A DNA stretch of 36,038 nt from Terramyces sp. JEL0728 (taxonomy: Eukaryota; Chytridiomycota; Chytridiomycetes; Rhizophydiales; Terramycetaceae): the NCBI GenBank assembly GCA_027603945.1, contig JADIIU010000129.1:1-36038 (forward strand). The letters are read 5' to 3'. The translations under genes were made by a program, and so were the position numbers. Shown one piece after another: positions 354-35,950 of this stretch; positions within the stretch are counted from its first letter, which is position 1; the number at the start of each line of letters is the position of its first letter. The notes under the pieces were generated by a model. It worked only from the letters and a program-made list of their open reading frames with translations, did not search any database and was not told where the DNA came from.

Positions 354-2094
354 ATGCATATTCAAGAGTTGCCGCATGATATACTCACCGCAGTCACTGA
401 TTACTTGAATTACTACAATGTACTCGACTTGTCATCTACAAACAAGTATTTCTACAATTTCTATTCTCCAATTCGTGCGTTGTTGGATTGGCCGGTTATG
501 GAGTTGAATGAAAAGAAGATAGCACATTTTCCAGATTTAAAAGAACGATTCCTAGCCTTTAAAAGCTCAAGGTTCAAGCTTGGTGGAATTGAAGTTTGGC
601 TACCAACAGCGGGTGAATTCCTTCCAATGATAGCACCATTGCGAGCAAAATCAGTTAGCATTATATTTCAGGAGCAAGATGGCTCTGATTTTGATATTTA
701 TTCTTTACTGGAATTGAAAAATATTACAGAAATAATTGTAGACGGCGACTGTGATGAAAATCAACAAGAATTTGCAACTATATTGTTTCCCGATATTATC
801 AGGAATGCTCCACAGTTACGCTCATTGACTATCGAAAACGATTACTTTGATTGCACCGAACTCGCAGACTATCTTCCAAATTCATTGATATCCGAATTGC
901 ACATCATTATGTATGCACACCAAACGAAAACAGCAAGGCTGATATTTACTGTGATCCATCTCACAAAACTAAAGGCTTTGAAGCTGAGTGGATGCGGCAT
1001 TAACGATGACGATATTTTGACTTTAGTCATGAATATTCGACAGTCCAGTTTGAAAGAACTTTGCATGGGCGGAAATGAGGTAACTGATATTGGTGCCATT
1101 GCGCTTGCGGATGTGATTCCCTTTACAAAATTGCAGTCGCTCTCCCTGCGAGATATAAACTCGAGAACTATTGGTATTTGTCATTAACTTTATAGAAGAC
1201 AATATATCGTTTGCAGGCGGTTGTGCGTTGGTCCAGGCACAGCAGAATTCACACTTGGAAAAGCTGGACTTGTTCAAAATTAATGTTACCCGCAACGAAT
1301 TTGTTGCATTTTTGACGACAAACCTCGACAATTATGATACGCTTTCGTTTCAGATACATGAAGGAGATGATGAACGAAGTGTTGGTTTAAGTGACACAAA
1401 AGATCGACAATTAGATTTGATGATGACGGTTGAAAATTTACCCACGCTCTTGGGTATCATTTCTAAAAGTAAATTACAATCATTGTCGTACGGGTGTACT
1501 TATAGACCTTTTTTATTGCAAGGAGAACTGGATAAAGAGTGGGAAGGCATCATTCACGAGAAAGTTGGAAAGATAATTGCCGGTTATATCAATGACTTGC
1601 CACAGCTGGAAATGAAAGCAGGACATCGAGAAGTCGCATCGTTTGTGGAAAACATTACAAAATCTTCGAAATTAAAGACATTGTCGATAAATCTGGGCTG
1701 GGGATTGAGAGATAATACAGACAGCACTCTCACAAAAATAGCGCACCACTTGGCTCACACAAACATCACTGCTCTGGATATTGAAGGATGGCGTAACAAG
1801 TATGATGTTCTCTTACTTTTTCTAAATTCAAATTCATTGCAAAAACTAAAATTTCGGACCAGCGAATCTGAAGGGTTTTTAGAATTTTTAGCCAACGCTG
1901 TCAAGACAGTGGCCAAGCCGTTTGCTTTGGTAGAAATAGAGCACAGCATGCACAATGTTACTGAACTGGAAGTCAAAGAAATGTGTAGGACTGTACAGCG
2001 GGTGCTGGATGGAAATGACATTATTAAAGTAAAAGTTGAAAAAGGCTACATTTATCCCACACCCGTCCATATACCTTGGATGCTACCAACCTAG
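354..2094 (+). CDS. F-box/leucine-rich-repeat protein, paralogue 1 (two exons)
   Basis: Exons are 354-1173 and 1217-2094, giving 565 aa. The N-terminus (residues about 5-45) is an F-box: LPHDILTAVTDYL, then LSSTNKYFYNFY. The rest is divergent leucine-rich repeats of roughly 27-29 residues, clearest around 215-300. F-box proteins bind Skp1 and act as substrate receptors of SCF ubiquitin ligases; the substrate is unknown. Intron 1174-1216 (43 nt, phase 1) is required because the first frame stops at 1187. Joining restores one LRR of the length seen in the minus-strand paralogue (3992-5659). Removing only 1174-1195 (22 nt, also GT...AG) would keep the frame and add seven residues. It is one of three adjacent paralogues. 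Function is by family only. Confidence 0.8.
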
Positions 2095-2414
2095 CGTATT
2101 AGTTGCAATCAGCCCAAAGTGATATTAGTCAATCTTTGGCGTGATTATTTTGTACCTGGTCGAATCCTTCTTGGAGGTTGTTTGTATTAAAATACCAATT
2201 GTTTAATTAAAAATTTGGAGCTGCCCTTGTTCAAGTAACTACTCGGTAAATATCACGAATTTGAACATTATCGTCATACGAATCCTTATCATGGGGTTTG
2301 CCAATTGAGAAAGCTCAAGCACACTCTTTACCAGCCCTCTTTGCTCCATTATTACGATACCCGCTCCAGGTTAAGTTACAAATATTTTGTGACTCATCAC
2401 AGTAATTCTTTCAA
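2095..2414. other. Intergenic between F-box genes
   Basis: About 320 bp without a supported gene. It contains the second copy of the TTATCATGGGG motif (2286-2300). A 65-codon frame from 2305 overlaps the downstream gene out of frame and looks incidental. Confidence 0.5.
2286..2300 (+). promoter_or_regulatory. Motif shared upstream of two F-box genes (copy 2)
   Basis: TTATCATGGGGTTTG matches positions 271-285 at 14 of 15 bases. It sits about 115 bp before the start of the F-box gene at 2415. A regulatory role is inferred from the shared location only. Confidence 0.25.
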
Positions 2415-3956
2415 ATGCTGGATCAACTCCCTGCCAATATACTGGAAAAGAAAGTATTCTATTACCTCTCACAATCCGATTTACGTAAACTACGATATCT
2501 GAATCAGACACTACAGATCCGATTGGATTTCCTCAAAAAACTAGATAAATTCCGGTTCGCATGGCCAGAATTGCTTATCGATCGTTACAAAGTCGATACG
2601 TTGGAATACCAGAACTTTATTGATAATATTTGCGCTGTATCAGATCTAAAGTTCACGAATATCAGAGTAGATAACTGTACTTTTGCTCATGTATACAACA
2701 ACTTGCCTGAATCATTCAAATATGAAATGCAGATAATGCACCCATTTATTCCGGATCGATTTGAAACTGCTCTTCAGACAAATGTCTGTGATTCGATTAA
2801 TATCAAACAGGAAATTTACATTCCCGTAGTGTTCAACAACTTGTCACAATTAACCAAATTATCATATCTCTCATTAAATTGTCATGTTGATGCAGACCTA
2901 CTCGCAGCGCTCCAATACTCGCATTTGTCAAAATTGGACATTATTCTTCATTTCAAAGTGACAAATTCCATTGACAGTTTATGTCAAGTTTTGCCAATGA
3001 CTGGAATCAAAATTCTAACTATTCAATCACATAGTATGGCAGATAGCATCTACATGAAAATTGGAGAGATTTTACCTTCAACTGCTGTGGAACAACTCAC
3101 ACTGCGTCAGCCTGACGTGCACCTATTTAAAACTAAAAGACCTATTCAGCCGAATGCGAGGTTTCCTTCTGGTATTTTGAGTAGCCCAGCTCCTGGAAAG
3201 GATGGAATAGAAGCCTTGGCAAATGGACTTGTAGGATCGAACGTACGCATGCTGGATATAGATACCATCCTGTTACAAGAAGAAGAGCTACTGCCTCTTT
3301 TGAATTGTCTGCCAATGGTGAAACTGGAAAACTTTAGCTACGATGGAAAATGGTTGGGCCCAGACTCTACTCTAGCTCTGATCAAAAACTTGCCAATTTC
3401 ACAAATCAGAAATTTGGAGGTTAGGGTAGATGAAAAGTATCTTTTACAATTCCTGGAATCTCTTTCACAATCAAAGGTAAAGCGGTTTATATTCGAAGGA
3501 TTCAAAAGTACATATTTCCAACTCTTAACAGCTAATATCCATTTACTGTCGTTGGAAACACTGGAATTGAATTCGCTGGTGCAACTACCAGGATTCTTTT
3601 CTCTCGTTTCGAAAATACCAGATATTAAAGAACTGTCGATTCCTATTTGGGCTCTTGAACACCTGAACTGTAAAATGAAAACATTGAAGCTAACTTGGGA
3701 GGTAAGCGATTTTTCCTTGCAACTACTCAAACTAATCCCGAAAGGCATCTTGGTGGAAATGAAACTTGGCAGTTTAACGAATATTGATTTATTTGTTTCA
3801 GCAACTAGTCATTTATGGTACTTGAAGATCCATTGTGGGTTCAGCAAGTTGACAAAAGAGCTCTACTCTGAGCTGGCAAGGAAAATACGCAGTGCAGGTG
3901 TGTTGGTCGATATCTGCTGGTGTATTAATGATATTCGTTTGAATAAATATTCATAA
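2415..3956 (+). CDS. F-box/leucine-rich-repeat protein, paralogue 2
   Basis: A single exon of 513 aa. The protein begins directly with an F-box-like segment (LPANILEKKVFYYLSQSDLRKL, residues 5-26), followed by Leu-rich repeats through to the C-terminus. The repeats have the same style as the neighbours (LSKLDI, KILTIQ, VEQLTL, NLEVRV, LETLEL). It is more diverged than the other two copies and has no intron. It ends 35 bp before the convergent third paralogue. It is likely an SCF substrate receptor; the substrate is unknown. Confidence 0.75.
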   Translation: MLDQLPANILEKKVFYYLSQSDLRKLRYLNQTLQIRLDFLKKLDKFRFAWPELLIDRYKVDTLEYQNFIDNICAVSDLKFTNIRVDNCTFAHVYNNLPESFKYEMQIMHPFIPDRFETALQTNVCDSINIKQEIYIPVVFNNLSQLTKLSYLSLNCHVDADLLAALQYSHLSKLDIILHFKVTNSIDSLCQVLPMTGIKILTIQSHSMADSIYMKIGEILPSTAVEQLTLRQPDVHLFKTKRPIQPNARFPSGILSSPAPGKDGIEALANGLVGSNVRMLDIDTILLQEEELLPLLNCLPMVKLENFSYDGKWLGPDSTLALIKNLPISQIRNLEVRVDEKYLLQFLESLSQSKVKRFIFEGFKSTYFQLLTANIHLLSLETLELNSLVQLPGFFSLVSKIPDIKELSIPIWALEHLNCKMKTLKLTWEVSDFSLQLLKLIPKGILVEMKLGSLTNIDLFVSATSHLWYLKIHCGFSKLTKELYSELARKIRSAGVLVDICWCINDIRLNKYS

Positions 3957-3991
3957 TAGCTATTTGATTAATTATCACTGGTACGGTATAA

Positions 3992-5659: not shown

Positions 5660-5681
5660 TTCAGATTTATTTTTCAATCTA

Positions 5682-6407
5682 ATGACAGAATCACAAGGAG
5701 AGAAATATTCGAGGTTGGTGAAGCAAATCAATATCCCGCCTTCACAGTTAAACACTCCATTTGGAAGACTGGCAGTTCAGCTAAAGGAATATAATGCTAA
5801 TCCGAATGATACAAGTACGCTCAATTCCATCAAAACATGGTTTACATTTTTACCTACTGGTACAGCAATCGTTTGTGGTATTGCTGCTTATAGATTCGCT
5901 AGGAAAAAGAATTGGAAGTGGTACAGTAGGTTGATATATACTACAGTGAGCAGTTATGCTGGTATGCAAGTATCGGTATTAGTTGGCACTTATATCGTTG
6001 TAAACAAGTTCAAGAGTACCGGATATGGTCAGATATTCAACCAATGGAGGTTTTTCAGATTAATGTAGATTGGAAGAAGAGCTGGCGCGGAATGGTGATC
6101 AGTATGTCAGATTAACGAATAAACAGGTTGATGAATGGATCAATGCGAATTCTGGTACTAATCACTAATGGTAGAGCTGATTAATGCGTTTACTAAATTC
6201 AGAAAGAGTAAATCCGACAGACAAAAGTTTGACCAGGATTTGTTTAAAAAGGATTCTGAATTTACACCCGTGAAAGATGAATTTGACTCTTCCAAGCCAG
6301 ATGGATTTAATACTGGTCCTCCTACACAAGATGGATTTTCCACATCCAGAAAGATTGCTAAAGTGAATCAGTATGGCGATGTCGTTGAAGAAGATCCAAA
6401 AATATAA
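5682..6407 (+). CDS. Two-TM membrane protein, OCIA-like (tentative), tandem copy 1, two tiny introns
   Basis: Exons are 5682-6049, 6069-6154 and 6175-6407, giving 228 aa. The introns are 6050-6068 (19 nt, phase 2) and 6155-6174 (20 nt, GTACTAATCACTAATGGTAG, phase 1). The downstream paralogue at 6494 has no introns and aligns straight across the second junction: DEWINANSELINAFTKF here, DEWLNGNKELVMEFTKI there. It also resumes in frame after the first junction. Two hydrophobic segments lie at about 47-65 and 80-100. The pattern of a Gly/Ser-rich second segment followed by K..STGYG recalls OCIA-domain mitochondrial membrane proteins, but this is only a weak resemblance. The C-terminus (about 165-228) is hydrophilic and differs from the paralogue. 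Confidence 0.8.
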
Positions 6408-6493
6408 TCAATTTAAAGCGAATTTTTCTTTCCAAAGAACAAGCATGTTTCACCATCAAAGAAACGTAAAGCAAAATATTTTTTCAATAATTA

Positions 6494-8030: not shown

Positions 8031-9235
8031 TTAATGTTCAACAACTTCAGTTTCCAATGGTTTGCGAGCTAAAAAGAAAAACATTGGTGTAAACAAGTTC
8101 AAATCACCAGCTTCAACAAGCGCATCGGCTCCCTTATTCAAGATTTGTGATACTTGACGAGTACCTTTAGGAGCAAACCCAACCATTTCTAGTCCCCACA
8201 CAAATTTATCGGTTACGCTAAATTAGTAAAAATTACAATCTGCCTAATGGGTTCATGGTGAAATTGGTAAGGTTGTCAAGTGATAGTTTGTACGATCCCT
8301 TCAATGGTGTTTGCCATGGTGCTTGAGCAGATTGAACAATTGGGTTGCGTGGATCAGCCAAATCTTGATATTCAACCAATTCAAATCCAACATTCTTTAC
8401 AGCTTGTAAACATTGTTCAATAGTATAGAGTTTTGCAATAGAGTTACCTTCTTCAAGCGCATGAATGATTTTTTTGTGAGTCAAGTTGGATTCATCGTAA
8501 TCTTCAGTTGTCAACCATTCGTAACAAGCAAAGTAGGCGCCAGGCTTCAAGGTACGGAATACTTCTCCGTAAGGGTTTTCCAAGTGACGAGCATGGCAAG
8601 TAGCTTCAATTGCATAAGTGGCATCAAAGTGGTTGTCTGGGAAAGGCATGGCTTCAAAGTTACCCTTGACCGCCTTGCACAAGCGTGACATTCCATATTT
8701 GTTTGCCAAAAAGTCACAACGCTTGACTTGATATTCGTTATTGTTCAATCCAACGATTTTTGAGCCAGAGAATTTTGCAATTTCTCTCAATGGACCGCCT
8801 AGTGTTAGATCTGCGCTATAGATCGTTCATTGATCTAGATTACGTACCTACACCGCAGCCAACATCGAGACAAGTCATTCCTGATCTCAAGCCAAGCTTC
8901 AAAGCAAGGAAATCTTCATGTCTTGCAATATTCTGGGTAAAGGTGCTGTCTTTGTACATTGGAGCAAAGTGGAATGATTGTCCCCAGCCATATTCATAAA
9001 AGTCAGTAACCATATCATAAAAGTGGTTTGTGAGGGAATCAGATCCTTTGCGTCTTTCAGCAACTGTTTGATCTGTGTTTTCAATACCGTTCTTGCGATC
9101 AGCGTCCCAGTAAGATGCATAAGATGAAACAGTGGCAGCATGAGAGGTAGAATCACTGTTCTTTGTACGAAGACGCAAGAGGAAGTTGTCTTGTTCAGGG
9201 TTTTGGTTTGGAGTTGGTAATTCTGGCTTGGTCAT
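8031..9235 (-). CDS. ERG6: Sterol 24-C-methyltransferase
   Basis: Exons are 8848-9235, 8237-8798 and 8031-8217, giving 378 aa (the yeast enzyme is about 383). It transfers a methyl group from S-adenosylmethionine to C24 of the sterol side chain (ergosterol pathway; ER/lipid droplets). Diagnostic blocks are YEYGWGQSFHF (about 82-92), LDVGCGVGGP (SAM motif I, split by intron 1), GLNNNEYQ, YAIEATCHA and LKPGAYFACYEW, with a C-ter block LFTPMFFFLARKP. Intron 1 is 8799-8847 (49 nt, phase 1). Intron 2 is 8218-8236 (19 nt, GTAATTTTTACTAATTTAG, phase 2). Without intron 2 the frame stops after PLGRL; with it, it reads PLGRFVTDKFVWGLEM, matching the family. Confidence 0.95.
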
Positions 9236-10327: not shown

Positions 10328-11710
10328 ATGCGAAATACAATCCGGATTATCGTCACTGCTTTAATAATTGATTTGCTAGTAACTAATATTTTAACAAGGC
10401 ATTTACAATCATATTGCCATTGATGCCGCGGTTGTTAAAGCACTACGAAAGCAAGAATGATTTATTGTACCACTCAATCAAGAGTCAAGTAAATGCATTT
10501 ACGCATAGCTTGGGACTTGCACCCAAGTTAGATATTGTATTATTTGGCGGGTTATTGGGATCAATGTATTCGTTTTTACAGTTTATCAGTGCACCGTGGA
10601 TTGTATCTCGTTTTAATGTAGGGTTCGTTGAGTGATAAATACGGTCGAAGACCTGTATTGTTGGTTTCAATGCTGGGAAATGCGTTATCAATGATCTTGT
10701 GGATTTTTGGGGATTCTTTTATTTTGTTTGTGTGGAGTAGAATCATTGGTGGATTAACGGAAGGGAACGTGCAAATGTCAATTGCGATGATTTCCGATAT
10801 TTCTACTGAAGAATCAAGATCGCGATCATTAGCATTGGTAGGTATTTGCTTTGCTGTTGGATTTTCATTTGGGCCTCCAAGTAAGTGTTTCTAACCGTAG
10901 TTGGTGGTAATTATTGCTAATTTAGCTTATTTCACTTCAATTGATTTGAAAACAATATTGCCTGATTGGCCAGTTAATCAATACTCTACTCCTGCACTGT
11001 TTGCTCTTGTTCTGATCACAATTGAAACCATTTACATGTATTTTTACTTGCCAGAGACGCTAGTTAGAAAAGGTGCAACGAATTAACAAAGATGAAAAGA
11101 AAAAAGTAGAAAAAAATAGCAAATCAATCTTCAATTTATCAGTCATTCACTTTTTATTCTTGTTTGTATACTCTGGAATGGAATTCACGCTTACTTTTCT
11201 CACTTTTGACCGATTCAACTTTACTAATAAGCAGCAAGGAAGATTTTTAGGATTCATTGGAATTTTCACTGCGCTAGTGCAGGGTGGATACGTAAGAAGG
11301 ATAAGAAACAGTGGAATGGAAAAGAATGTGGTTTTCAATGGTGTATTGTCATGTGCGATTGGACTGTTTATCATTGGTACGTAATAGTTAATCAAGGCAC
11401 ATTGGCTGTTGACAATTCTTCAATCTATTTCCTGTATATTGGAGCGATATTCCTTTCATTTACTTCTGGGACTGTTGTGACCTGCCTAACCTCCTTAGCA
11501 TCGCAAACCACAAAAGAAAACACTGGTAAGGTGCTTGGATACTTTAGGGCTAGTGGGCAGCTAGGTAGATGTCTCGGCCCAATGACCATATGCTTATTAT
11601 ATTGGATATATGGGTCTTACAATATCTATTTGGTTGGGTCAATTTGGATGGTTTTCGTTTCCTTGATCGTCTTTTTGGGAATAGAAAGCACGAAAATAAA
11701 AAAAGATTAG
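10328..11710 (+). CDS. MFS transporter, MFSD10/TETRAN-like, six tiny introns
   Basis: Exons: 10328-10378, 10399-10602, 10622-10880, 10901-10906, 10926-11072, 11092-11376 and 11397-11710; 421 aa, about 12 TM segments. Introns are 20, 19, 20, 19, 19 and 20 nt. The joined protein follows animal MFSD10 closely: IIDLLAFTIILPLMPRLL (TM1), VLFGGLLGSMYSFLQFISAP (TM2), SLSDKYGRRPV (loop 2-3 motif), SRIIGGLTEGNVQ (TM4), YLPETL (after TM6), SGMEFTLTFLTFDRF (TM7). Intron 1 (GTAACTAATATTTTAACAAG) and intron 2 (GTATCTCGTTTTAATGTAG) interrupt conserved motifs that splicing rebuilds exactly. Introns 3 and 4 flank a 6-nt exon (TTGGTG) that restores GPPIGAYF, the GP..G motif of TM5. MFSD10 is an organic anion carrier in mammals; the substrate here is unknown. 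Confidence 0.88.
10881..10925 (+). other. Two tiny introns flanking a 6-nt micro-exon
   Basis: 10881-10900 (GTAAGTGTTTCTAACCGTAG, 20 nt) and 10907-10925 (GTAATTATTGCTAATTTAG, 19 nt) each have GT, a CTAA branch-like motif and AG. They enclose TTGGTG (10901-10906). With the micro-exon the protein reads FGPPIGAYF; if the 45 nt were one intron it would read FGPPTYF. Both keep the frame. The conserved transporter motif GP(xx)G favours the micro-exon. Confidence 0.7.
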
Positions 11711-23098: not shown

Positions 23099-24069
23099 AT
23101 GAGTGGAATTCAATCTGGAATCCAGCCAACTGAAGAATTGTTAAATATCGTAAATTCAGATACAAACATCATTCAAATTACAATTGAAAATGAAAAGCTG
23201 ATTGCAAAACAGTTGCTGAACGGCACCTTGGAGGATATCAGTAAATTACTGGACCAGATTTGCTTTGTGTTGTTCAAGGAAAAGGATTGGTATTTGTTTC
23301 AATACGTACCTGATGGCTCTTTGGTTCGGGAAAAAATGATGTACGCATCATCAAAACAAGCGCTCTTGAAAGGTAACTTTGCAGTCTTGAAGTTCTCTAT
23401 CCTTGTCTATTGATTGCATGTGTCCGTCAATCAACTCTTTAATCATATGAATAGTACTAACGAAAGGAATTGGAGAAAACAGAATCAACGAATTTGTATA
23501 CGCGTCAACTCCTGCAGAATTGACAAAAGAAGGAATTGAAAAACACATTCAAAGTCAACAGTCTAAACCATTGACAGAATCTGAAAGAGAGAAAATCAAA
23601 ATCGATTTCCAACAGGTAATAAAATTTAACAAGGCGTCCAGTGCAATCGGGACATCTTCCAGATCCACAACTACTGCTGGAATTAGCTTTCCGTTAACAC
23701 AAAAAGCAATCGATGCGCTAAAAGAAAAAATTGTACTATTAAAGATTGAAAATGAAGTAACTGATTTGTTGGCTGTTGAAGATAGTATGGAATTTGAGCA
23801 CAGGGGCCCATTCTTTTTATACAGCAGTTCACCAAAATGTACCTATTGTTAATCTAGTTTTTGCCTTTATTTCGCCGCCTGATACGCCAATTAAGAGCAG
23901 GATGTTGTACGCAGCTTCAAGACAGACAATTCTCTTGCAATTGGAAGAAATCGTTGGAAAGATTGAAAAGAAATTTGAAGGTGATTCAGTCAACGAAATT
24001 ACCTTTGAAGAGGTTGTTGTGGAGAAAGCGAAAGGGTTCAGCAGACCTGCGAGACCAGGTAGGAAATAA
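23099..24069 (+). CDS. Twinfilin (two ADF-H domains)
   Basis: Exons are 23099-23372, 23467-23784 and 23804-24069, giving 285 aa. Two ADF-H domains bind actin monomers and barbed ends. Domain 1 (about 1-135) contains WYLFQYVPDGSLVREKMMYA; domain 2 (about 165-270) contains FAFISPPDTPIKSRMLYAAS. The basic C-terminal tail FSRPARPGRK matches the twinfilin tail (KP.GPAGKR). Intron 1 is 23373-23466 (94 nt), with TACTAAC placed 6 nt before the AG. Intron 2 is 23785-23803 (19 nt, GTATGGAATTTGAGCACAG), which moves the frame from a dead end to the FYTAVHQNVPIVNLVFAF stretch. It is shorter than yeast Twf1 (332 aa). Confidence 0.85.
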
Positions 24070-24171: not shown

Positions 24172-26228
24172 TTATTGAAGTAATTCGTCCTCACTTTCAT
24201 TATTAAGTAAAAGCGGCTTCCTGTACCTTTCTCTGGTCTGCTTAAGCTTCTTGATTGAAGGCGTTGATTGATTTTCCTTTCTTTTTTTAATTTGTGCTGT
24301 CAGAGGATCAAAATCATTTTCATCACAAAATGTGAATAAATCAAAGTTGTCATTTACCAGTGTTTCTTCAGAGTCCTTTTGGAGACATTTCGCACCCTTT
24401 TTGTTTCGTGGACTGTTTTCTTTTTCCATTGGAAGATCAGTGAATGGACTTTCCAGTTGCTCTTCTGAATCATTTGGTGGGCTAGTATCGAAAATATTGT
24501 GTTTAATAGTGTTATATTCTTCATCTTCTGTAGCACTTTTGATCGGACTACTTGTCAAAATTATCCTGGTTTTGCGTTTAAAATTTATCACTGGACTTGG
24601 CGCTTTAAATGGGCTACTATCAACCAGCACTCTAGTTTTAACAGGAGTAAAATATGGAGTTGCAACCAAATCGTCTTTGGTTTCAGTCTGGCTTGGAGTA
24701 AATAGTTGATTGCTAACATCTAAAAGCTCGTTCAATGAAGTATACATTCTCGGCTTGGGTTTCAAAGGAGTAGATGAAATCCAAGTATCAACCAAAGGCT
24801 CAAATTTCCTACTATTAATTGAAAATACCATGGATTGTCATTTGACTGTAATTTTCTTATATAGTTTTCTATTTTTGCAATATCCAAAAGAGTGCTTTCT
24901 GATTGTCGCAGGTTGTTTGCTAAATAAACGCTCAATAACAATCCAAGCTTTTCAATATCTTTTCTTTCATTTTCACTGATTTGAATATTGTTTGTTTGGT
25001 TGATTATCGGGTTAATTTCAGTGTCACTAAATGCTGTTGTAGGAGCCAAATTCTCTGTTCTATCTGGTCCCACTTCTTGTTCAGTTGTCCTTTCCCCCAA
25101 AACCAATTGGATATACGCACATATAGAATTAATATCAGCCAATTCTAAAGTAAAGTTGGCCAAGTAGTCATAATCAATAGAAATCTTGGCCATTCTCTTC
25201 AAATTCTTTAGTTTATCCAAATCAAATGAATACAAGTAGATAATAAACGCTTCCTCCCTAGTGCTCTCAATATGAAGCGACAATTTCCTAATAAAGTTAA
25301 TAATATTTTCTTTAGAATTCTTGTATCTTTCGTCCAACTGATAATTTTCTTGCTTGTCCTGATTCAATAGGAATATCCGGTCCAAAATGACTTTGATTTC
25401 CTTTTGAAGAAATAATTGGTTCAATACAAATAAGGTATTCTCTTGTCCAACCATTTCAAACAGCTTGTAGTCTCGTCTTTTCAAGTAAATAGAAATCAGA
25501 AAATTCAGCCAATTGCCCTCGTATTGATGTTGTTTTGCCAATGATAAAATTGATTTGCTGTCCATTTTGTTCAAGTTTTTCGTCTTTAGCCAGTAGGATT
25601 TGATCAATTGAAATCCCTGGTTTACTGCTTTTCTTTCTAGACACGTCTGACCAAGAGAAAGTAGAATCGCTGGTAGTGGACAGTCTTGCACAATTACACT
25701 GGATTACCTTTTAGTTACCTAATGATTAAAAACCCTTACCTTCAATGAGAATATGCTTACCTAAATCAATATAACACGAACCTAGGATCAATATGAGATA
25801 ACCTAAGTCAACTCTGCAAATACCTATGATTAGACTACAAGCACCTTATTATGTGCTGAAAGAGGACATTCTTTTTGTAATAAATGGGAATCATTTCATA
25901 AATCTCTTCCTGGTTCAGCTCATTGTAATAATTCATAATATTGCCAACAGCAAACGAAGACAGCTGCCCAAGATCTACTGCATCATTATCCCATAATCTA
26001 TCTGCATAAGATAAATAAACCTAAAATATCCTGAAATGAATCTTTTAATCCAATCATCGACCTTCGAGACGGAGATGTGAATTTCAATTTTGCTTGTTTG
26101 GTTTTAAATGTTAAAACCAACTTCTCTCGTTCTGACGGTCTTTGTTCTACAGATGTTTTTAGTGATTTCAGCTTTGCTTTTATCTGTCGTATAGTTGTTT
26201 TGATTTTTCTACCATCAGTCTCGTCCAT
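24172..26228 (-). CDS. Unknown helical-repeat protein with S/T-P tail; contains intron array
   Basis: Exons: 26021-26228, 25839-26001, 24829-25698 and 24172-24808; 625 aa. Introns: 26002-26020 (19 nt), 25699-25838 (140 nt, the tandem array) and 24809-24828 (20 nt). All phases agree. The N-terminal about 60 residues are basic. Residues about 70-430 are a mostly helical solenoid-like region rich in Leu/Ile/Lys/Asn. The tail (about 430-625) is disordered with repeated S/T-P sites (SSTPLKP, TPSQTE, TPYFTP, SSPFKAPSP, SSPIKS) and basic patches, suggesting a nuclear CDK substrate. No confident family; a nuclear-pore or chromatin role (ELYS-like layout) is speculation. The start lies 28 bp from the divergent XPF start. 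Confidence 0.7.
25699..25838 (-). repeat. Tandem array of seven abutting intron-like GT...AG units
   Basis: On the minus strand this intron can be cut completely into units that each begin GT and end AG, with no base between them: 25824-25838 (15 nt), 25803-25823, 25782-25802, 25761-25781, 25740-25760 and 25719-25739 (five units of exactly 21 nt), then 25699-25718 (20 nt). Most units hold a YTRAY-like motif near the 3' end (CTAAT, TTGAC, TTGAT, TTGAT, TTAAT). The two units at 25761-25802 share ATATTGAT, hinting at duplication. Flanking exons join in phase 2 (RC, then FVIVQDC). Unit size equals that of the free-standing introns in this window. Confidence 0.75.
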
Positions 26229-26256: not shown

Positions 26257-28879
26257 ATGAAACTGCTTCCATTCCACATTCAGGCATTTGAAGACCTAAT
26301 GAGCAATTCAGTCCAGGGACAGAGTGATGGCTTACTGGTAATGGCACAAGGACTACAGATTGAACGTGTCCTATTTTCAGTAATTCAAATGGGAGATAAC
26401 AAGAGTTTAATTCTGCTGCTGAATACAAGTACGACCGAATTCACTATCCTTAAGAAACATTTGAAAGAAGAATACCTGCTGGACAGCTCATTGACTTTTC
26501 CCGACTTGTTTGTAGAAATCAACAACGAAACGAGTGCGAAAGACAGGTATTTCGAACTAACAAGACAGTCGCTTTATTTGGAAGGAGGAGTGATTTCAAT
26601 TACACCGCGAATTCTTATAGTTGATTTGCTAAACAAAATCATTCCAGTTTCATTGATCTCTGGATTGCTGATAAACCACTGTGAAGATATCTCTGATACC
26701 AGCACAATTAGTTTTGTTACCAGGATGTATAGGCAGTACAACAAATTGGGGTTCATTAAGGCATTTTCGGAATCTCCAAACGTATTTGTAAATGAAATTG
26801 GCAAACTTGAAAGAATGATGAAAACGTTGCATGTTTCTAATTTGTACATCTACCCACGATTTCATCTAGTGGTAAAGCAAGATATTGAGTCGAGAGGAAA
26901 CTTGAAATTGCTGGAAATTCGGATTCCGTTCACCAAGCAAATGAAATACATCCAGACCGGACTGTTGGACTGTATGAATCAATTGCTGGGAGAACTAAAG
27001 AGGTCATATCCTCTGGATACTGAAGATTTGACGTTGGAAAATACTTTTTTCAAGTCGTTTGATTACACTATTAATTCACAGTTGGAACGATCTACCAGCA
27101 AAACCAGACAGATCATTTCAGATATCCGGACATGTAGGACGCTGTTAACTTATTTGGATTCCTATGATTCAGTTACGTTTTATACTTTTTTGGAAACTAT
27201 ACGAGAAGCAAACAAGCAAAACTCAAGTTTTAAAATTGATAATTCATGGCTGCTATTGGATCCCGCCAATGTTGTATATTCGGCAGCACAGCACCGGGTA
27301 TTTGTAAAAAAGAGCGATAAAGTCAATCAGGATTTACCAAACGGATATCAATTTAATTTGGAAGAGCAGCCGAAATGGAGAGCACTATTACAAATATTTA
27401 AAGAAATCGAAAAAGAAAGACAAGGAACAGAAAAAGGCAACAGTAATAAAATGCTCATTTGTAGTTTTGATACTAACGGATAATGCACGAACAGCCAACC
27501 AGCTACGAAAGATTTTGAAACGAACGGATAAATCCGACAAAAGTTTCTCTTCAAAGGGAATTGAAATACTATTGGAAGGATACTTGAAAAACTATTTCAA
27601 CTGGAAAGCACAAATAAAGCAGCTCAATGAAAATAGAAGCGAAAAAGAAATTGAAAAGAATGAGCCAAACAAGAGGAGAAGAGTAAGAAAGAATCTGGAC
27701 ACCTCAAAAACAGATTTTCTCCAACAATCTGCAGGACTGGCAGAGTTTTCCACTGAGCCTGTTTTGGATTTTGAAAGCGACTTGAATTCTTATATCAAAA
27801 TCGTTACAATGTCAAAGAACCATGAATATTACCAGCCTGTATCCAGTATCCTAGAATCATTTATTCCAAAGTGGATTGTTATGTATGACGCGAATGTAGA
27901 GGCTGTTCGACAAATAGAAGTAAAAACTGCTAATGCTAGTGCTATAAATCAATGTATCCTGCCTACAATATTACAGTATATTTTATGGTTTACGAAAACT
28001 CCATTCAAGAGCAGTACTACCTGACAAATCTACGAAAAGAAAAAGAAGCATTTGAAAAGCTAATCAACCTGAAGAGTGTACCTTTTATATAATTTAGAAT
28101 ATTGTTATTCCATTGGATGAACATGGACGAGTAAGTTTGGCGCAAGACTATTTCTGGAAGGAAGACTCGAGAAATGCAGGCGGGCAAGAGGAAACAAAGA
28201 AAATAATATGTGATGTGCGTGAATTCCGGTCATCTGTGCCATTGTTATTATTTGCCCGCAGAATCAAAGTTATTCCTATAACCTTGGAAGTTGGAGACTA
28301 TATTCTGTCACCCGAAATTGCTATTGAGAGAAAGAACCTTTCTGATTTGACACAGTCGTTGAAATCTGGTAGACTGTACAAGCAGTGTCACAGTATGTCT
28401 CTCAGCTATCAGAGATTCGGATTACTGGTTGAATTTCAAGATACAAAGTCGTTTAGTTTAGCAATATCCAAGAATGAATCGGACATGGATGTAACTAGAA
28501 GGTTGGTATTGCTTTGTATACATTTCCCAAAGCTATCGATACTTTGGAGTCCTAGTCCGCCCAATGTTGCCGAGTTATTTGAAGATTTGCAAGTAAAGCA
28601 GGACCCGCCAGATCCAGAACAAGCGAGATTAAAAGGGGTAGATAAGCAACAAATTGGCGTATATAATCAGACCCTCATGGTATCTTTTACTTATCCTAGG
28701 ATGTTTTATTGAACGTGCCTGGGATATCGCCAAACAATGTAAGGATTGTGATGAAGAGTGTGAAAAATTTGCAGGAATTGTCAGAGATGGGTTTGGAGGA
28801 TGCTCAGAAACTTCTTGGAGAAATGCCCGGTCGCCAGCTGTATGCATTTTTTAGAAATTCATTCAAGATGATTGAGTGA
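26257..28879 (+). CDS. XPF/Rad1 structure-specific endonuclease
   Basis: Exons: 26257-27442, 27465-27919, 27940-28077, 28098-28679 and 28700-28879; 846 aa (human XPF 916). Introns: 22, 20, 20 and 20 nt. Catalytic subunit of the XPF-ERCC1 (Rad1-Rad10) nuclease for nucleotide excision and crosslink repair. A degenerate SF2 helicase-like half (about 1-590) is followed by the nuclease motif GDYIL...IERKNLSD (Gly659-Asp660, Glu670-Arg671-Lys672, Asp676) and a C-terminal double helix-hairpin-helix (about 786-846, LLNVPGISPNNV). Each intron interrupts a conserved block that splicing restores: ILILTDNARTANQLR, RQIECYKSMYPAYNITVYFM, LKSNIVIPLDEHG and LMDVLLNVPGIS. The start at 26257 lies just upstream of the XPF N-terminal match. 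Confidence 0.94.
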
Positions 28880-28914: not shown

Positions 28915-29535
28915 ATGGATAATATATTGCAAATAAAGCTCAATAAATATGTAGTTGACGGTATACCCTCTTGTGCAGCACAAGTGGAAGACGTCATAGT
29001 AAAAAGACGTGTCAGTGACTTGAAAAGTCAACCTTTAATGTCTTGTGGGAGATTGTGTAAAGGCTATCTAGTTGAATGCAAGAACCCAGCAGTAAAAGGA
29101 AGACTCTTTTGTTTTACCTGCGCGGGTCGTAAATCCAGGAACAAAAAGACAATGGCATTGGAATCCTGCGAAAAGGAATGCAAATCCTTGAAACTAAAAC
29201 TGGCAGAATTAATCCCTGAGCTAGTAGATTCAAACTTACGTTAGGAAAGATGGAAAGGTTTGGCGCAGACATTGCAATTATCTGAACGACAAGCCAGATT
29301 AGTTGAACCCGATTAACGATAGGAATTAAAACTGTTGAAAAAGCAGTACTATCCACAGGCTTATGAAGAAGATAAGAGCCTAGAAATATCTGGTGCGGCA
29401 AAAACCCTTCTTTCATTTGGAAAGAAGCCAGATACTAATGATACCTACCAAGATAATCCAGTCAAATGGGACGCCGCCTCATTGAAATTGAATACCTTGG
29501 GAATGATTAACGTCCCGCCGGCGGCTGAAGCCTAA
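28915..29535 (+). CDS. Cys-rich coiled-coil protein, unknown
   Basis: Exons are 28915-29223, 29245-29301 and 29323-29535, giving 192 aa. Both introns (29224-29244 and 29302-29322) are 21 nt, phase 0, and each carries an in-frame stop. Residues about 43-75 contain CGRLCKGYLVECKNPAVKGR followed by FCFTCAGRK, a C-x3-C-x6-C...C-x2-C arrangement that could bind zinc. A coiled coil follows (about 80-135, KECKSLKLKLAELIPELERW). It starts 35 bp after the XPF stop. No known family is recognised. Confidence 0.7.
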
Positions 29536-29572: not shown

Positions 29573-31025
29573 TTAAACTTCATTCAATACAAATCTCACG
29601 CCTTGTTCTGATTGAGAAGCCAAGAGTGGAGTGACATTTTTCTGAGAAGACCAGAATTCCAGTAATCTGGATCTCGACGATTCGCCAATTACTAGGCAAA
29701 CTATAGCATCATATCCGCCAGCTACCATTATTCAAGAAAATACCTCCTGGAACACCAGCTAATAATACACCATCAATATCCTGGGACTGATCCAAGAGAA
29801 GAGTTTGCTCGTTTGGTTCAATTTGTACATCTGCCAATTCACCCATTTGCTTCAGCAATTTCCGAATTTTCTGCATTAAAAATATGTACTTTGAAAGAAA
29901 TACTAATGGATATTATTGAAGAAGTTATGCCGAATTGATCTGGGTTGGAGATCCAAGTAACAGAACGACTGTTAGAGAGTGTTTCTAAGACAGAGAAATA
30001 TTCTTTTGAGTGAGATTTCTCGATTTCTAGTAGTCTGCCAAATTGTGAAATAATGGTGTTGTTGTTCAATGAAATCTCATCCCAAATTGATTTGCTCAAC
30101 TCTGGAAAGTTCAATCTCCATTCCAACACTTTAGAAACCATTTTAGGTGTATTACTTCCACAGTGAACATCTCCCATCTGCAAAATAAATCCAGGGGGGA
30201 CCCTCATATCTGTGATTTTTGTATCCCATCTTTATGAAACAAAATATACCTCTTTTCAATTACATTCACCAACTTTTCTTTTTTTAGATCCTTATCCATA
30301 TTGATAAGTTCAGGGTTAAACCGATTGTAAATTTGACTTCCGTAAATCGCACAGCTAATATCAAATCCGCTTCCAATCTTCCCCTGCGCCAAACAGTGAC
30401 AATCTACTTTAGCTATGCAATTACATTGTGCCAATTGCTCTATGATTTGCAGCCCACCTTCCTGAACTTGGCTACCAACTACTTGTATTATATCAAATTG
30501 AACCAAAATACTGGATACTAGAGCGGCTACTAATGCCGCAGATGATCCCAAACCTGTTTTGTGAACCTGGCCGATACTAGTTCCGGTCGAATTGAAACTG
30601 GGAATTTTTTTGAGAGATTCTGCATTTACAGGTAAGCCGTTTGACTCTAAATACTCTAGTTGGGAATAGAAATCGTTATCTGCATTAACCACTACTTTTA
30701 ACGCAGTTGGTAGAAGCGTTCTTTTTGCTGAAATATATCTCATTGTGTAGGCCAATACAGTGTGCAAGAATGGGTTGTTTCCATAGGATACAAGTTTATC
30801 ACTTCCACGATCGTATTCGTATTTCCAAATCCCGTCCGTAAATTGGGGCGAATGTATTTCAAAGTAAATATTGCTAGTCTCAGAATTCATTTCTTTAATT
30901 TCAACATGAAATCGGGCATCCAATGCACATACTATTCCACTATATGCTTGATCTAATACCAAATAGCCTCCACAGACCAACACTTTGCCTGGTGCTGAAC
31001 ATGCTACTTTTCTTCCGATTGTCAT
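29573..31025 (-). CDS. ERG8: Phosphomevalonate kinase
   Basis: Exons: 30250-31025, 29890-30229, 29744-29870 and 29573-29721; 463 aa (yeast Erg8 451). A GHMP-family kinase converting mevalonate-5-phosphate to the diphosphate in the mevalonate pathway. Motifs are SAPGKVLVCGGYLVL (about 10-24), TGLGSSAALVAA (ATP loop, about 160), GSGFDISCAIYGSQ and GDVHCGSNTP; near the C-terminus is GVPGAGGYDA. Introns: 30230-30249 (20 nt), 29871-29889 (19 nt, GTACATATTTTTAATGCAG) and 29722-29743 (22 nt). The last splits and rebuilds the conserved PGAGGYDA motif exactly. Confidence 0.94.
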
Positions 31026-31157
31026 TTGAATGTGAAAAATGTAAAATACGATTTAGACTTAATTCATCATGGAATCTAGGAAACGGTTCTTGCAATTTAT
31101 CTCGCAAATGAATTCAGAAGTGTGGCCGTCAAAAGTTGTTTCTAAAAAACACGCAAG

Positions 31158-31868
31158 ATGATGTCAAAAGCACCGACGGGCAGAGTTAAACCAATTAACT
31201 CGCATGTAAGCGAATATTTCATCTTAGAAACAACTGAAAGCAAATGAAACTAATAACAAGCTGGGATATCAAATTGTTGCTCCATTAGGAAACAAAAAAC
31301 ACTTTACCTCTTTTTCAGCCATCTACTCCAAAGGGCAAATTCCATGTAGACTGCAACACGGATCTGTTAAGCACAAGCTCGTATGGACGCAAGAAGTTTC
31401 TAGTTTGGACTACAATCCCATCTTTATAACATTTTGCGATGGCTTGAGGGAAAGTCAGCATCCATTCAGATTCATTGTCGAAATTGGGTTAATTGACTTG
31501 ATTGGAAGCTCAGGAGCATATGAAAAGATACTTCCTCTAATGCCAAGCGCGATTTCCGCTCTAAGGAACGGGTTAGCTCAAAAAGAGAAGGTAGGATAAC
31601 ATCTAATTGCTAGAAACAGTTTCTGACGGCTTTGAAGGTGCTAAAAAGCTTAATCTGTCTGCTCAAGGAGGATTTCCAACAATTCCTAGGAACCCTACTC
31701 CCACCAATTGCCTCTAGGATACTTGTTCCTGACACTGATATCCGAGAAGCCGTAAGAATCAATTCATTCTAGGTTCAAGAAGTATTAATGGAAGCACAGG
31801 TAAATTGCGGCCCTCAAACTTTGGAAATCATAAGAAAAAGAGTTCCCACCTACTTGCCTCAATTGTAA
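31158..31868 (+). CDS. PACRG-like flagellar doublet-microtubule protein
   Basis: Exons: 31158-31205 (a second ATG at 31161), 31228-31590, 31614-31751 and 31773-31868; about 214 aa. Introns: 31206-31227 (22 nt), 31591-31613 (23 nt) and 31752-31772 (21 nt). PACRG is a helical-repeat protein at the inner junction of ciliary doublet microtubules. The match to the animal protein runs the full length: FTSFSAIYSKGQIPCRLQHG, LDYNPIFITFCDGLRESQHP, YEKILPLMPSAISALRNGL and KQFLTALKVLKSL, ending RKRVPTYLPQL (animal VVPTYESCL). Presence implies the organism builds a flagellum or recently did. Confidence 0.88.
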
Positions 31869-33908
31869 GGATAAAGTATTGATTGGATTGTTGCGAACTC
31901 CAATATGTTGGATAATATAATTAAAGAGCAGTATTAATACTACAATTTTCACTCAAAAAACGTGAGAATTCACTTGGCTTTAAATCAAACAGAATGATAT
32001 AAAAGATATTACATTCGTTAGATATTGATAGTTGAGATAACTATTATTCACTTCATCAAACCAGTCTACCACTCGCTCGTTTTTGTAATGTAAAATACAG
32101 AAGTCATCCGTTGATACTAATTAAAGAATAAATGCCAATGGCTCAAATTCAGATAGAAGTTCCTTCAAATTTTAACTTGAAAACAAGGAATGTACACAAC
32201 ACAAGGAATAACATACAAATCAAGGCTTTGATTTACTAAAACAACAGCAAATCATAAAGGCGAAAAACTTTGTTGGGCAAAGCTTTATAGAGTTGAACTA
32301 TTTTATGAAAAGTATGTTAAAACTTATCTAGCTGGACTGTAAAAGGTTCTTATTGTTATCTCTCCCAACAGATATTGGATCAGATATAATTTTATACGAC
32401 GTCTGATTCAAAATAGCTTGAATACATTGCTGAGTATTAACTGTGTTTAACAACGAATTAGTGTACGAGTCAATTAACAACTTTTAACATCAGACGGTAG
32501 CAGCGTTGCGATATGTGGCTACAAACGAAGAATTCCAGACTTTACCATAATAAACAGCTTCCAAGTCTCAATTTTTCGGTTTATTCTCGATACATGAAAT
32601 TTCACTGTAAAGAATGATAGTTCAGTTCAAGAGATGTGATTCCACTCAGCCTCAACGAAAACAACAGTACATTTAAAACTCGAAAGATATGCTTCTTCTG
32701 ACTATTAAATTTAACCTTTCATCACTACACTTTCAATCATGTATTTATCAAACCACATGAATGATAGTGCCAACTGCAAATATTTTATTTATAGTTAATG
32801 TCTTGTTTGCTAAATTTCATTTCCTAATATTGAATTATGATGACCAGCTAAGCACAATTTATAATTGACAACGCCACGTATTCCAAGCTCATCTAGAAGA
32901 TCCGTGGAATTTGCCATAATACCGTGTTTGCAAGTTAGGTCGTGTTTAAGCGACTATGTGAATACTTGATGTTTAATTACAATCGAATAATACTGCTTTA
33001 GAAGTCAACCAGGATTCAAGTTTTTGTTTTCATGACAGTAAAGTATAATTTAATCTTTTTTAACTGCAATTGCACTAGGTTACTGTAACTTTTGGGTATA
33101 TCCTCTTCGTTGTTATGATGGCCGACAAATATCGGTGTCTATCGTTGTTGGTCGGAGTGTTTTTTTGGTAATTTGAATTGCAAAATGTGGTCATCGTTCC
33201 ATAATTCTCTCGAGGCATCAACTAGCACAATAAGGATTACACAAATTTTTAGATTGCGATAAATGTAGGTATGCAAGGATCGAGCTATGGCAGCAGCTAG
33301 TTTCTCGATTTTCTCAACATATTTAATTTAACAATAATTTTGGTAAAATGCAAATGACACCACCTCAAGTTTATAGAATAATTTAAGAATGCTATTTATA
33401 ACTCAAAATTAATTGTTAACGTCTCCGTCTAGAAATTGAGAATAGACCAATTTCATTAGTTGAATTCCTGATAATTCTAGAAAATGAACGGACATTATTT
33501 TACATTGCCGAAATAAAGATGGGAAGGTAACCTGGAGACAAATTTAAATTAATTTGGACAAATCAAGACTCAGTAGCAAAGTGACTTTCAGATACTTAGT
33601 CGAGCATCAAGGTAACTTCAAATTACTAGTTATTATATTAAATAAATGGTAAACTTTATCACACTGAGAAACAGGCAAATAACAAATCTTTGCACGAATT
33701 GATTGGGTACATACCACTTTCAACCCGTAAGAATTAAATATTCTGTCACTTTTTTTTGTTTCATCAGACATTTAAAATGATTGCAATGAAGGTTAATATC
33801 TTGCATCTGAATCCCATGAGACAGTAATTGCGTAAATGACAGAATTTAGCGAATGCGTTTGCAAAATTATAATAAAATCAGAAGCAGTTTTTGGTGCATC
33901 ATATGTAT
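31869..33908. other. AT-rich, gene-free 2-kb segment
   Basis: About 2,040 bp with no open frame above about 60 codons, in a window where other gaps are usually below 350 bp. It is AT-rich with many short direct runs but no obvious tandem repeat, transposon end or tRNA box. Short fragments with intron-like joints exist (for example GTATGTTAAAACTTATCTAG near 32310) but do not assemble into a convincing protein. One hairpin followed by a T-run is listed separately. It may hold a non-coding RNA, regulatory DNA or a decayed gene. Confidence 0.5.
33120..33167 (+). ncRNA. Hairpin plus T7 run: possible 3' end of a Pol III transcript
   Basis: GGCCGACAA (33120-33128) pairs with TTGTTGGTC (33145-33153), nine pairs including two G-U, across a 16-nt loop. 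A run of seven T follows within about 8 bases. In eukaryotes a T-run of this kind terminates RNA polymerase III. No recognisable snRNA, SRP or RNase P core was found upstream, so this is only a structural hint. Confidence 0.15.
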
Positions 33909-35555: not shown

Positions 35556-35688
35556 TGAAATGAGGCAAAAATATTTCTGAATAAATTAAATCTGATGCGA
35601 GCATTAAATGCCATCCCAGACGAGAATTCCTTTTTCGAATTGCACAAAGATATCCCCGTCAATAATTGCAACAGTAAATGAAATTTAT

Positions 35689-35950
35689 TTAATCAGCTCT
35701 GGCATTTTCCTCAAGTTTATTCTGCCAGTAAGCACCTACAACTGGAATTTTGGCGAATACTTCTCTTCGGAACAGTGGAGTTACTTCTACGAAAAATAAC
35801 GCTAAAATTCCGACGGTTGCACCCCATCCTGCATATGAAGGAATACTGTTGTTAAAGAATATATTACGATGCTCTAATTTTTTGTGGATGAGATACTGAT
35901 AAAGTAGAGCGAATCCATGGAGCTGTTGTTAACCATTTTTGTGCCAACAT
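35689..35950 (-). CDS. QCR10: Cytochrome bc1 complex subunit Qcr10
   Basis: Exons 35868-35950 and 35689-35845, giving 79 aa (yeast Qcr10 is 77). The intron 35846-35867 is 22 nt, phase 2, with CTTTAAC before the AG. The N-terminus MLAQKWLTTAPWIRSTLS is followed by SIPSYAGWGATVGILALFFV (one TM) and VFAKIPVVGAYW, matching the WG.....LF......KIP..G pattern of this small accessory subunit of complex III in the mitochondrial inner membrane. A 25-nt alternative intron (35886-35910 region) also gives an open frame but a poorer splice site. Confidence 0.75.

What the first reader, a model, noticed from the sequence alone, without database searches (positions are those of the whole stretch)
1174..35867. 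Ultrashort spliceosomal introns (19-23 nt) are the norm in this genome
Of 53 introns placed by frame and phase, 48 are 19-23 nt, with modes at 20 (20 cases) and 19 (15 cases). They are GT...AG with a YTRAY-like motif a few bases from the AG, e.g. GTAATTTTTACTAATTTAG (ERG6) and GTAACTAATATTTTAACAAG (transporter). Many junctions restore conserved motifs in ERG6, XPF, ERG8, NDR kinase, PACRG and MFSD10-like proteins, so frameshift errors are not a sensible explanation. To my knowledge such lengths are described in heterotrich ciliates (about 15-16 nt) and the Bigelowiella nucleomorph (about 18-21 nt), not in a fungus-like nuclear genome. A spliceosome handling about 20 nt must fit U1/U6, the branch point and U2AF in almost no space.
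Basis: partly seen in the sequence, partly recalled or inferred. Interest (0 to 1): 0.97.

Follow-up and report, generated by a model that had tools for sequence, protein, structure and literature searches.

The report
Twenty-nucleotide introns across a chytrid genome
The genes of a chytrid fungus (Terramyces) appear to be interrupted mostly by spliceosomal introns only 19 to 22 letters long, close to the smallest known in any eukaryote, which could make a fungus a test bed for how small an intron the splicing machine can handle.

Summary
The window matches in length a 36,038-base contig of the chytrid fungus Terramyces sp. JEL0728. A scan without motif or length preference over 200 kb from 20 other contigs finds ORF-joining GT...AG segments in clear excess at 19-21 nt: 135 against 45.6 expected, z 13.2, first of 256 terminal pairs; E. 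coli and T4 show none. My models place 47 introns in the window, 45 of 19-22 nt (short lengths favoured). In ERG6, an MFS transporter and ERG8, 11 of 12 junctions are ungapped in at least 57 of 59-60 homologues, two of these in weakly conserved stretches. Branch-like sites mostly leave 13-15 nt before and 5-6 after the A. Kinase paralogues share intron positions with different lengths. U2 snRNA, SF1, both U2AF subunits, U1C and Cwc25 were found; U1 and U6 snRNA were not. No RNA reads were available. The deposited ERG8 protein already splices two of four, but ten paper searches listed no description in a fungus. Parallels: heterotrich ciliates, mikrocytids, chlorarachniophyte nucleomorphs.

The parts
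1180..1198 (+). predicted intron 19 nt, gene 354-2094
   Evidence: one search has 1174-1198 (25 nt): uncertain
5926..5946 (+). predicted intron 21 nt
   Evidence: only
6050..6068 (+). predicted intron 19 nt
   Evidence: only
6155..6174 (+). predicted intron 20 nt
   Evidence: only
8218..8236 (-). intron 19 nt in ERG6
   Evidence: 59 of 59 homologues ungapped at the junction
8799..8847 (-). intron 49 nt in ERG6 (a longer one)
   Evidence: 59 of 60 homologues ungapped
10379..10398 (+). intron 20 nt in MFS transporter
   Evidence: 57 of 59 ungapped
10603..10621 (+). intron 19 nt in MFS transporter
   Evidence: 59 of 60 ungapped
10881..10900 (+). intron 20 nt in MFS transporter
   Evidence: 58 of 60 ungapped
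10901..10906 (+). 6-nt micro-exon between two ultrashort introns, restores GPPIGAY
   Evidence: 58 of 60 homologues ungapped at both junctions
10907..10925 (+). intron 19 nt in MFS transporter
   Evidence: 58 of 60 ungapped
11073..11091 (+). predicted intron 19 nt in MFS transporter
   Evidence: 59 of 60 ungapped but only 1.4 of 8 residues identical on average: weak
11377..11396 (+). intron 20 nt in MFS transporter
   Evidence: 58 of 59 ungapped
12020..12038 (-). predicted intron 19 nt
   Evidence: low score; one search has 12008-12038 (31 nt): uncertain
12604..12624 (-). predicted intron 21 nt
12706..12725 (-). predicted intron 20 nt
13111..13131 (-). predicted intron 21 nt
   Evidence: one search has 13089-13178 (90 nt): uncertain
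13721..13739 (-). predicted intron 19 nt
14016..14035 (-). predicted intron 20 nt
   Evidence: one search has 13992-14035 (44 nt): uncertain
16052..16072 (-). predicted intron 21 nt
   Evidence: only
16217..16235 (-). predicted intron 19 nt
   Evidence: only
16918..16936 (-). predicted intron 19 nt
17238..17257 (-). predicted intron 20 nt
18284..18303 (-). intron 20 nt in NDR-family kinase
   Evidence: spliced protein aligns without a gap here to human STK38
18666..18685 (-). intron 20 nt in NDR-family kinase
   Evidence: as above
19133..19151 (-). predicted intron 19 nt
   Evidence: only
19200..19219 (-). predicted intron 20 nt
   Evidence: only
19270..19288 (-). predicted intron 19 nt
   Evidence: only
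19391..19410 (-). predicted intron 20 nt
   Evidence: only
20004..20023 (-). predicted intron 20 nt
20727..20746 (-). predicted intron 20 nt
23373..23466 (+). predicted intron 94 nt
   Evidence: low score
23839..23857 (+). predicted intron 19 nt
24809..24828 (-). predicted intron 20 nt
26002..26020 (-). predicted intron 19 nt
   Evidence: only
27443..27464 (+). intron 22 nt in XPF
   Evidence: human XPF has four extra residues about three residues away
27920..27939 (+). intron 20 nt in XPF
   Evidence: no gap against human XPF
28078..28097 (+). intron 20 nt in XPF
   Evidence: no gap against human XPF
28680..28699 (+). intron 20 nt in XPF
   Evidence: no gap at the junction against human XPF (a 3-residue gap lies seven residues upstream)
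29224..29244 (+). predicted intron 21 nt
   Evidence: one search has one of 99 nt, 29224-29322: uncertain
29302..29322 (+). predicted intron 21 nt
   Evidence: low score; see previous: uncertain
29722..29743 (-). intron 22 nt in ERG8
   Evidence: 59 of 59 ungapped; 22 nt also removed in the deposited protein
29871..29889 (-). intron 19 nt in ERG8
   Evidence: 59 of 59 ungapped but only 2.3 of 8 residues identical; deposited protein skips the preceding coding stretch
30230..30249 (-). intron 20 nt in ERG8
   Evidence: variable loop, only 2 of 59 ungapped; but 20 nt are removed in the deposited protein
30404..30424 (-). intron 21 nt in ERG8, frame-preserving and stop-free
   Evidence: 58 of 59 ungapped after removal; retained as seven extra residues in the deposited protein
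31206..31227 (+). predicted intron 22 nt in PACRG
   Evidence: lies upstream of the Pfam match
33064..33083 (-). predicted intron 20 nt in a doubtful gene
   Evidence: only
35846..35867 (-). intron 22 nt in QCR10
   Evidence: junction near residue 28, inside the Pfam QCR10 match (residues 22-73 to positions 6-57)

Best explanation
They are U2-type spliceosomal introns of 19-22 nt, and they are the usual kind of intron in the nuclear genome of the chytrid Terramyces sp. JEL0728. Inferred mechanism: an ordinary major spliceosome recognises each one by intron definition. The 5' splice site (GTAATT-like), a branch site that can pair with U2 (YTRAY) and YAG stand almost edge to edge: mostly 13-15 nt before the branch A and 5-6 nt after it. 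That leaves no room for a pyrimidine tract downstream of the branch point; the T-rich stretch lies upstream of it. The absence of any excess below 19 nt is read as a footprint floor: the sum of the parts that U1/U6, U2 and the 3' splice site must contact. Shown: position, ends, homology at junctions, sharing between paralogues, presence of several factors. Inferred: removal from RNA, which A is the branch point, intron definition, the footprint floor.
For: Clear excess at 19-21 nt, specific to GT-AG, absent in E. coli and T4. No excess just below: 17 nt 17 vs 18.5, 18 nt 4 vs 4.2, then 19 nt 46 vs 19.8. Junctions join homologous proteins without a gap, including a stop-free 21-nt case that only homology reveals (58 of 59) and a 6-nt micro-exon (58 of 60). 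Kinase paralogues keep three intron positions while lengths are 19/21/21/21, 20/21 and 22/20 nt. U2 snRNA has the GUGUAGUA branch-pairing sequence. SF1, U2AF65, U2AF35, U1C and Cwc25 genes were found and are predicted to carry 19-20 nt introns themselves; the SF1-HH domain goes from two partial matches (66.2 and 42.9 bits) to one full match of 113.6 bits once spliced. The deposited ERG8 protein splices two of four.
Against: No RNA evidence was available. U1 and U6 snRNA were not found (two sub-threshold U6-like hits look spurious). The donor is weak at +5 (G in 16-28%). The junction at 30230-30249 is not supported by homologues (2 of 59). The U2AF65 match before splicing is below the curated cut-off (251.7 of 310.3 bits), and the U1C and U2AF35 models are incomplete. 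Mild excess at 34-38 nt. One conserved kinase segment needs about 20 nt (or 17, GT..CC) removed with no AG available. The sample is 200 kb of 15.0 Mb, one stretch from each of the 20 longest-numbered contigs C1-C20.
Confidence: 0.95

Rival explanations
1. Sequencing or assembly errors, or decayed genes, taken for introns.
For: Frame breaks are frequent; the assembly has duplicated blocks.
Against: Errors would not sit between GT and AG at 19-21 nt, nor restore proteins exactly, nor recur at one position in paralogues.
Confidence: 0.01
2. Real introns, but not the norm: most introns are longer and were missed because the methods favour short ones.
For: A 49-nt intron in ERG6 is supported; 24-40 nt shows 320 against 294.9, with 34, 35, 37 and 38 nt at 127 against 96.0; longer candidates.
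Against: The scan treated every length from 12 to 80 (8 to 120) alike and shows no other comparable peak. It needs open frames of 60 codons on both sides, so genes with many short exons are under-sampled.
Confidence: 0.05
3. DNA segments removed from the genome or skipped in translation (elimination elements, programmed bypass), not spliced.
For: Very short uniform inserts are known for some eliminated elements (recalled, no call).
Against: GT...AG ends and a branch-like site matching U2 snRNA are marks of splicing; splicing factors are present.
Confidence: 0.01
4. Real introns, but removed by a modified spliceosome, as proposed for Stentor (changed branching factors that avoid clashes with a tight lariat). 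This is a variant of the main reading rather than its opposite.
For: A 13-15 nt loop between donor and branch A is very tight; U1 and U6 were not found and could be unusual.
Against: Cwc25 begins MGGGDLNLKKSWHP, identical to the human protein over those 14 residues; U2 and the U2AF65 RRMs are ordinary. Isy1, Yju2 and Prp8 were not examined.
Confidence: 0.2

Closest known systems
Chlorarachniophyte nucleomorph introns (Bigelowiella natans), 18-21 nt, 865 introns (PMC6461891, passages)
   Same: Same length range, numerous, GU-AG.
   Different: A 373-kb relict endosymbiont nucleus with shortened U1 and U5 and no obvious 5' border motif beyond GU; here a 15-Mb fungal assembly with GTA donors and a clear branch-like motif.
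Mikrocytid introns (Mikrocytos mackini), 16-17 nt (PMC10245619, abstract and passages)
   Same: Ultrashort, narrow size range.
   Different: Shorter; 224 predicted introns, in a parasite where 17-19 spliceosomal proteins were identified; here 1.59 predicted introns per kb of predicted coding sequence, with SF1 and both U2AF subunits found.
Heterotrich ciliate introns (Stentor coeruleus), 15-16 nt, branch A at position 10 in most 15-nt introns (PMC9505925, passages)
   Same: Ultrashort as the rule; its commonest intron starts GUAAUU, with a U run before the branch A and five bases after it.
   Different: Here about 4-5 nt more between donor and branch A, a YTRAY branch consensus, and the Cwc25 glycine motif is kept, which that paper reports missing in Stentor.
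Trichomonas type B introns, about 25 nt, down to 23 (PMC12316389, passages)
   Same: Short, with a CTAA branch motif near AG.
   Different: 24 introns of an intron-poor genome; here the usual kind in a genome with many introns.
Fungal introns generally, e.g. Cryptococcus neoformans mean 63 bp (PMC8476143, passages)
   Same: Fungi.
   Different: About three times longer; that survey's table holds two Chytridiomycota. Microsporidian intron lengths were not checked here (one search failed); I recall about 23 nt upward.

Membership tests
U2-type spliceosomal introns | GT-AG ends | tested here: met
   First of 256 terminal pairs at 19-21 nt, z 13.2, next pair z 3.3
U2-type spliceosomal introns | branch site that can pair with U2 snRNA near the 3' end | tested here: met
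   With GTA and YTRAY required, AG ends vs all 15 other ends together: 19 nt 29 vs 9, 20 nt 26 vs 12, 21 nt 9 vs 4, but 24-40 nt 16 vs 85; U2 GUGUAGUA. 277 of 283 predicted introns, but those were chosen with a matrix that includes the site
U2-type spliceosomal introns | removal restores a conserved protein | tested here: met
   exception 30230-30249
U2-type spliceosomal introns | absent from mature RNA | not testable with these tools
   no RNA reads
U2-type spliceosomal introns | U1 and U6 snRNA encoded | tested here: inconclusive
   no U1 match; no match to human U6, a search without a positive control; U6-like hits below cut-off; U1C protein found at 52.4 bits, though the same search also rang in one bacterial control
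Ultrashort-intron genomes (nucleomorph, mikrocytid, heterotrich) | most introns in a narrow band at or below about 25 nt | tested here: met
   148 of 182 introns 19-23 nt without length prior but with a 19-nt minimum; 276 of 300 at 19-22 nt with a prior
Ultrashort-intron genomes (nucleomorph, mikrocytid) | reduced genome with a stripped spliceosome | tested here: inconclusive
   15.0 Mb assembly; SF1, U2AF65, U2AF35, U1C and Cwc25 found; no full inventory
Stentor-type modified branching factors | Cwc25 N-terminal glycine motif lost | tested here: not met
   MGGGDLNLKKSWHP kept

The most novel reading that the evidence does not exclude
A free-living, culturable fungal lineage (lifestyle recalled; at least Terramyces, perhaps also Boothiomyces) has shrunk nearly all its introns to the physical minimum, about 19 nt, that an unmodified major spliceosome with consensus donor and branch sites can process, independently of ciliates, mikrocytids and nucleomorphs. 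Going lower, as Stentor and mikrocytids did, would then need changes to the branching machinery.
Probability: 0.5. Interest if true: 0.88.

Novelty: new variant of a known kind. Interest (0 to 1): 0.78.

Why it matters
In the papers I saw, introns this short were described from ciliates, a relict algal nucleus and reduced parasites. A fungus with ordinary-looking branch-site factors that splices about 20 nt would let the minimum substrate of the spliceosome be measured, separating what the active site needs from what lineage-specific changes allow. It also explains faulty gene models: the deposited ERG8 protein keeps one intron as seven extra residues and skips coding sequence at another, and one pan-eukaryotic survey excluded introns under 30 bp outright (PMC10639083, passage), so such genomes can be overlooked.

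Tried and rejected
Tried without result: rRNA placement of the organism (RF01960) did not complete; identity came instead from protein P0241, whose contig length equals the window's. My first guess, aphelids or sanchytrids, was wrong. No tRNA in the window. No Rfam match at the gathering score in the window plus 100 kb. U1 and U6 were sought and not found. A first window scan with K=50 showed 15 and 13 GT-AG cases at 19 and 20 nt but had no expectation model; searches replaced it.

Considered and rejected: frameshift errors, translational bypass, DNA elimination (see rivals). A read-through of a 22-nt intron in Boothiomyces JEL0866 ERG8 (protein P0242) would fit the peptide CKTVVDFRLPLLGAG at the same junction: a GT..AG template of 22 nt followed by a frame-shifted CHCLAQG. 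But the frame-shift test gave 26 hits, most of them not collinear, so this is only suggestive. The first residues MQ of P0121 (JEL0866 transporter) may likewise be the end of an intron at the position of 10603-10621; suggestive only. Divergence of introns against exons in duplicated blocks gave 4 of 121 sites in introns and 32 of 2839 in exons for L004/L005, 0 of 77 and 14 of 2594 for L045/L046, and a poor alignment for L002/L003; too few to use.

Rows dropped: I used 60 of 120 listed ERG6, 60 of 120 MFS and 59 of 120 ERG8 homologues (P0241, the organism's own deposited protein, left out). In one search genes under 100 aa were left out. My gene models contain errors: an 83-nt 'intron' in L004 swallows kinase sequence and a 63-nt one in SF1 is doubtful. 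An earlier count gave wrong coordinates for the L004 segment; 2188-2210 is right.


Full report
What it is in. The window is C129 of a 15,016,339-base assembly in 231 contigs. A search with the spliced ERG8 protein returned phosphomevalonate kinase of Terramyces sp. JEL0728 on a contig of 36,038 bases, the window's exact length; ERG6 is 96% identical to a Boothiomyces macroporosus protein. Terramyces is Chytridiomycota, Rhizophydiales, Terramycetaceae. So this is a fungal genome.

Is the pattern more than chance? I asked, for every segment of 12-80 nt with any two terminal dinucleotides, whether cutting it out joins two open frames of at least 60 codons that are not joined otherwise. In 200 kb (one 10-kb piece from each of 20 of 231 contigs), GT-AG at 19-21 nt gives 135 against 45.6 expected from the separate donor and acceptor frequencies, z 13.2, first of 256 pairs; the next pair has z 3.3. 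Other lengths: 12-18 nt 75/82.9; 22-23 nt 35/40.8; 24-40 nt 320/294.9; 41-80 nt 911/916.9. The window alone: 21 against 5.8. E. coli K-12 (50 kb) gives 16 against 24.1 and T4 (50 kb) 6 against 7.8. By single lengths: 17 nt 17/18.5, 18 nt 4/4.2, 19 nt 46/19.8, 20 nt 67/20.1, 21 nt 22/5.7, 22 nt 22/20.9. There is a mild excess at 34, 35, 37 and 38 nt (127/96.0 together) and at 57 nt (22/12.7). With GTA and a YTRAY motif required, AG ends number 29 at 19 nt and 26 at 20 nt while all 15 other ends together give 9 and 12; at 24-40 nt it is 16 against 85.

Gene models. A gene finder with flat lengths found 49 GT-AG introns of 18-23 nt and 4-12 for four decoy end pairs, in window plus sample. Adding a weight matrix without length preference (but at least 19 nt) gave 182 introns, 148 of them 19-23 nt. 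Adding a length prior gave 300 in 143 genes of 100 aa or more, 276 of them 19-22 nt, and 47 in the window. The last two lean to short lengths by construction, and disagree on several window introns (see parts). In L004 an 83-nt 'intron' swallows kinase sequence, and a 63-nt one in SF1 is doubtful.

Junctions. In ERG6, the MFS transporter and ERG8 I aligned the spliced protein with 60, 60 and 59 homologues. Eleven of 12 junctions are ungapped within four residues in at least 57 of 59-60; two of these lie in weakly conserved stretches (11073-11091, 1.4 of 8 residues identical; 29871-29889, 2.3 of 8) and count less. The exception, 30230-30249, lies in a variable loop (2 of 59), but the deposited protein removes exactly 20 nt there. 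The intron at 30404-30424 is 21 nt without a stop; removing it gives LAQYCHCLAQG as in homologues, keeping it adds seven residues. At 10901-10906 a 6-nt exon between introns of 20 and 19 nt restores GPPIGAY. The NDR kinase aligns with human STK38 through both junctions, and XPF with human XPF through three of four; 27443-27464 sits near a 4-residue difference. QCR10 has its junction inside the Pfam match.

Evolution. Neighbouring kinase genes on C46 (PAK-like by eye) share a phase-0 position with introns of 19, 21, 21 and 21 nt, a phase-1 position with 20 and 21 nt, and another phase-0 position with 22 and 20 nt; apart from the ends and the branch-like motif the sequences differ. A coding insert could not change length by one or two bases.

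Anatomy. Of 19-nt introns with a branch-like motif 65 of 81 have 13 nt before the A and 5 after; 20-nt introns split between 14+5 (50) and 13+6 (46) of 121; 21-nt introns favour 14+6 (36 of 54). The donor is GTAATT-like; +5 is G in 16-28%. T-rich sequence lies before the branch site. These figures come from matrix-selected introns.

Machinery. U2 snRNA is canonical with GUGUAGUA (140.2 bits). U2AF65 is 251.7 bits before splicing, below its cut-off of 310.3, but the spliced protein aligns over both RRMs with human U2AF65 (212.3 bits). U2AF35 gives four exon matches at 47-76% identity to the S. pombe query, SF1 a full SF1-HH domain once spliced, U1C 52.4 bits (that search also rang in one bacterial control), Cwc25 two copies. 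Cwc25 keeps the N-terminal glycines whose absence in Stentor was proposed to make room for a tight lariat (PMC9505925, passages). So introns of 20 nt do not seem to need that change; whether 15 nt do remains open. U1 and U6 were not found, which may be assembly gaps.

Mechanism. Six donor bases, a seven-base branch site and a short tail to YAG, placed nearly edge to edge, sum to about 19 nt (inference; the base-pairing extents are recalled). I read the lack of any excess below 19 nt as that sum.

Known or new. Passages read: nucleomorph 18-21 nt, mikrocytids 16-17, Stentor 15-16, Trichomonas 23-25, human 43-65 called ultrashort, fungal survey, survey excluding under 30 bp, sanchytrids, a Rhizophydium genome paper. 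Ten searches listed no description of such introns in a fungus; some lists were capped (15 of 24 papers, 20 of 57), the library holds open-licence papers only, and none of the papers was read whole. Microsporidian introns were not checked. The deposited annotation contains some of these introns, so its makers' pipeline met them.

Noticed in passing
G000 C18, C3, C26, C42, C44, C90 (kinase matches): Several contigs give paired, equal or near-equal kinase matches 10-62 kb apart (for example C18 at 61.8 kb); L004/L005 differ at 1.1% of exon sites, and Cwc25 lies on both C30 and C33. Could be haplotypes joined in assembly or real segmental duplication.
   Followed up: partly
L004:2188-2210: In a MARK/KIN-like kinase (by eye), homology calls for about 20 nt (or 17 nt, GT...CC) to be removed between FYMS and DCEK, with a branch-like CGCTAAC but no AG acceptor. 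Unexplained.
   Followed up: partly
L030 and L031 at 1501-1606: Two near-identical U6-like matches below the Rfam cut-off (27 bits) that contain ACAGAGA but match the rest of the core poorly; probably a repeat.
   Followed up: partly
window 29573-31025: The deposited ERG8 protein of this contig keeps a 21-nt intron as seven residues and, at a 19-nt intron, leaves out the preceding coding stretch.
   Followed up: yes
window 10881-10925: A 6-nt exon between two ultrashort introns, 45 nt in all; two spliceosomes could hardly assemble there at once, so removal should be stepwise (inference).
   Followed up: no
window 354-5659: Three neighbouring genes that look F-box/leucine-rich-repeat-like by eye (no family search run), two of them without predicted introns.
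   Followed up: no
window 7245-7952: Intronless, secreted-looking cysteine-rich protein with no Pfam match; resembles expansin/barwin-like proteins by eye only.
   Followed up: partly
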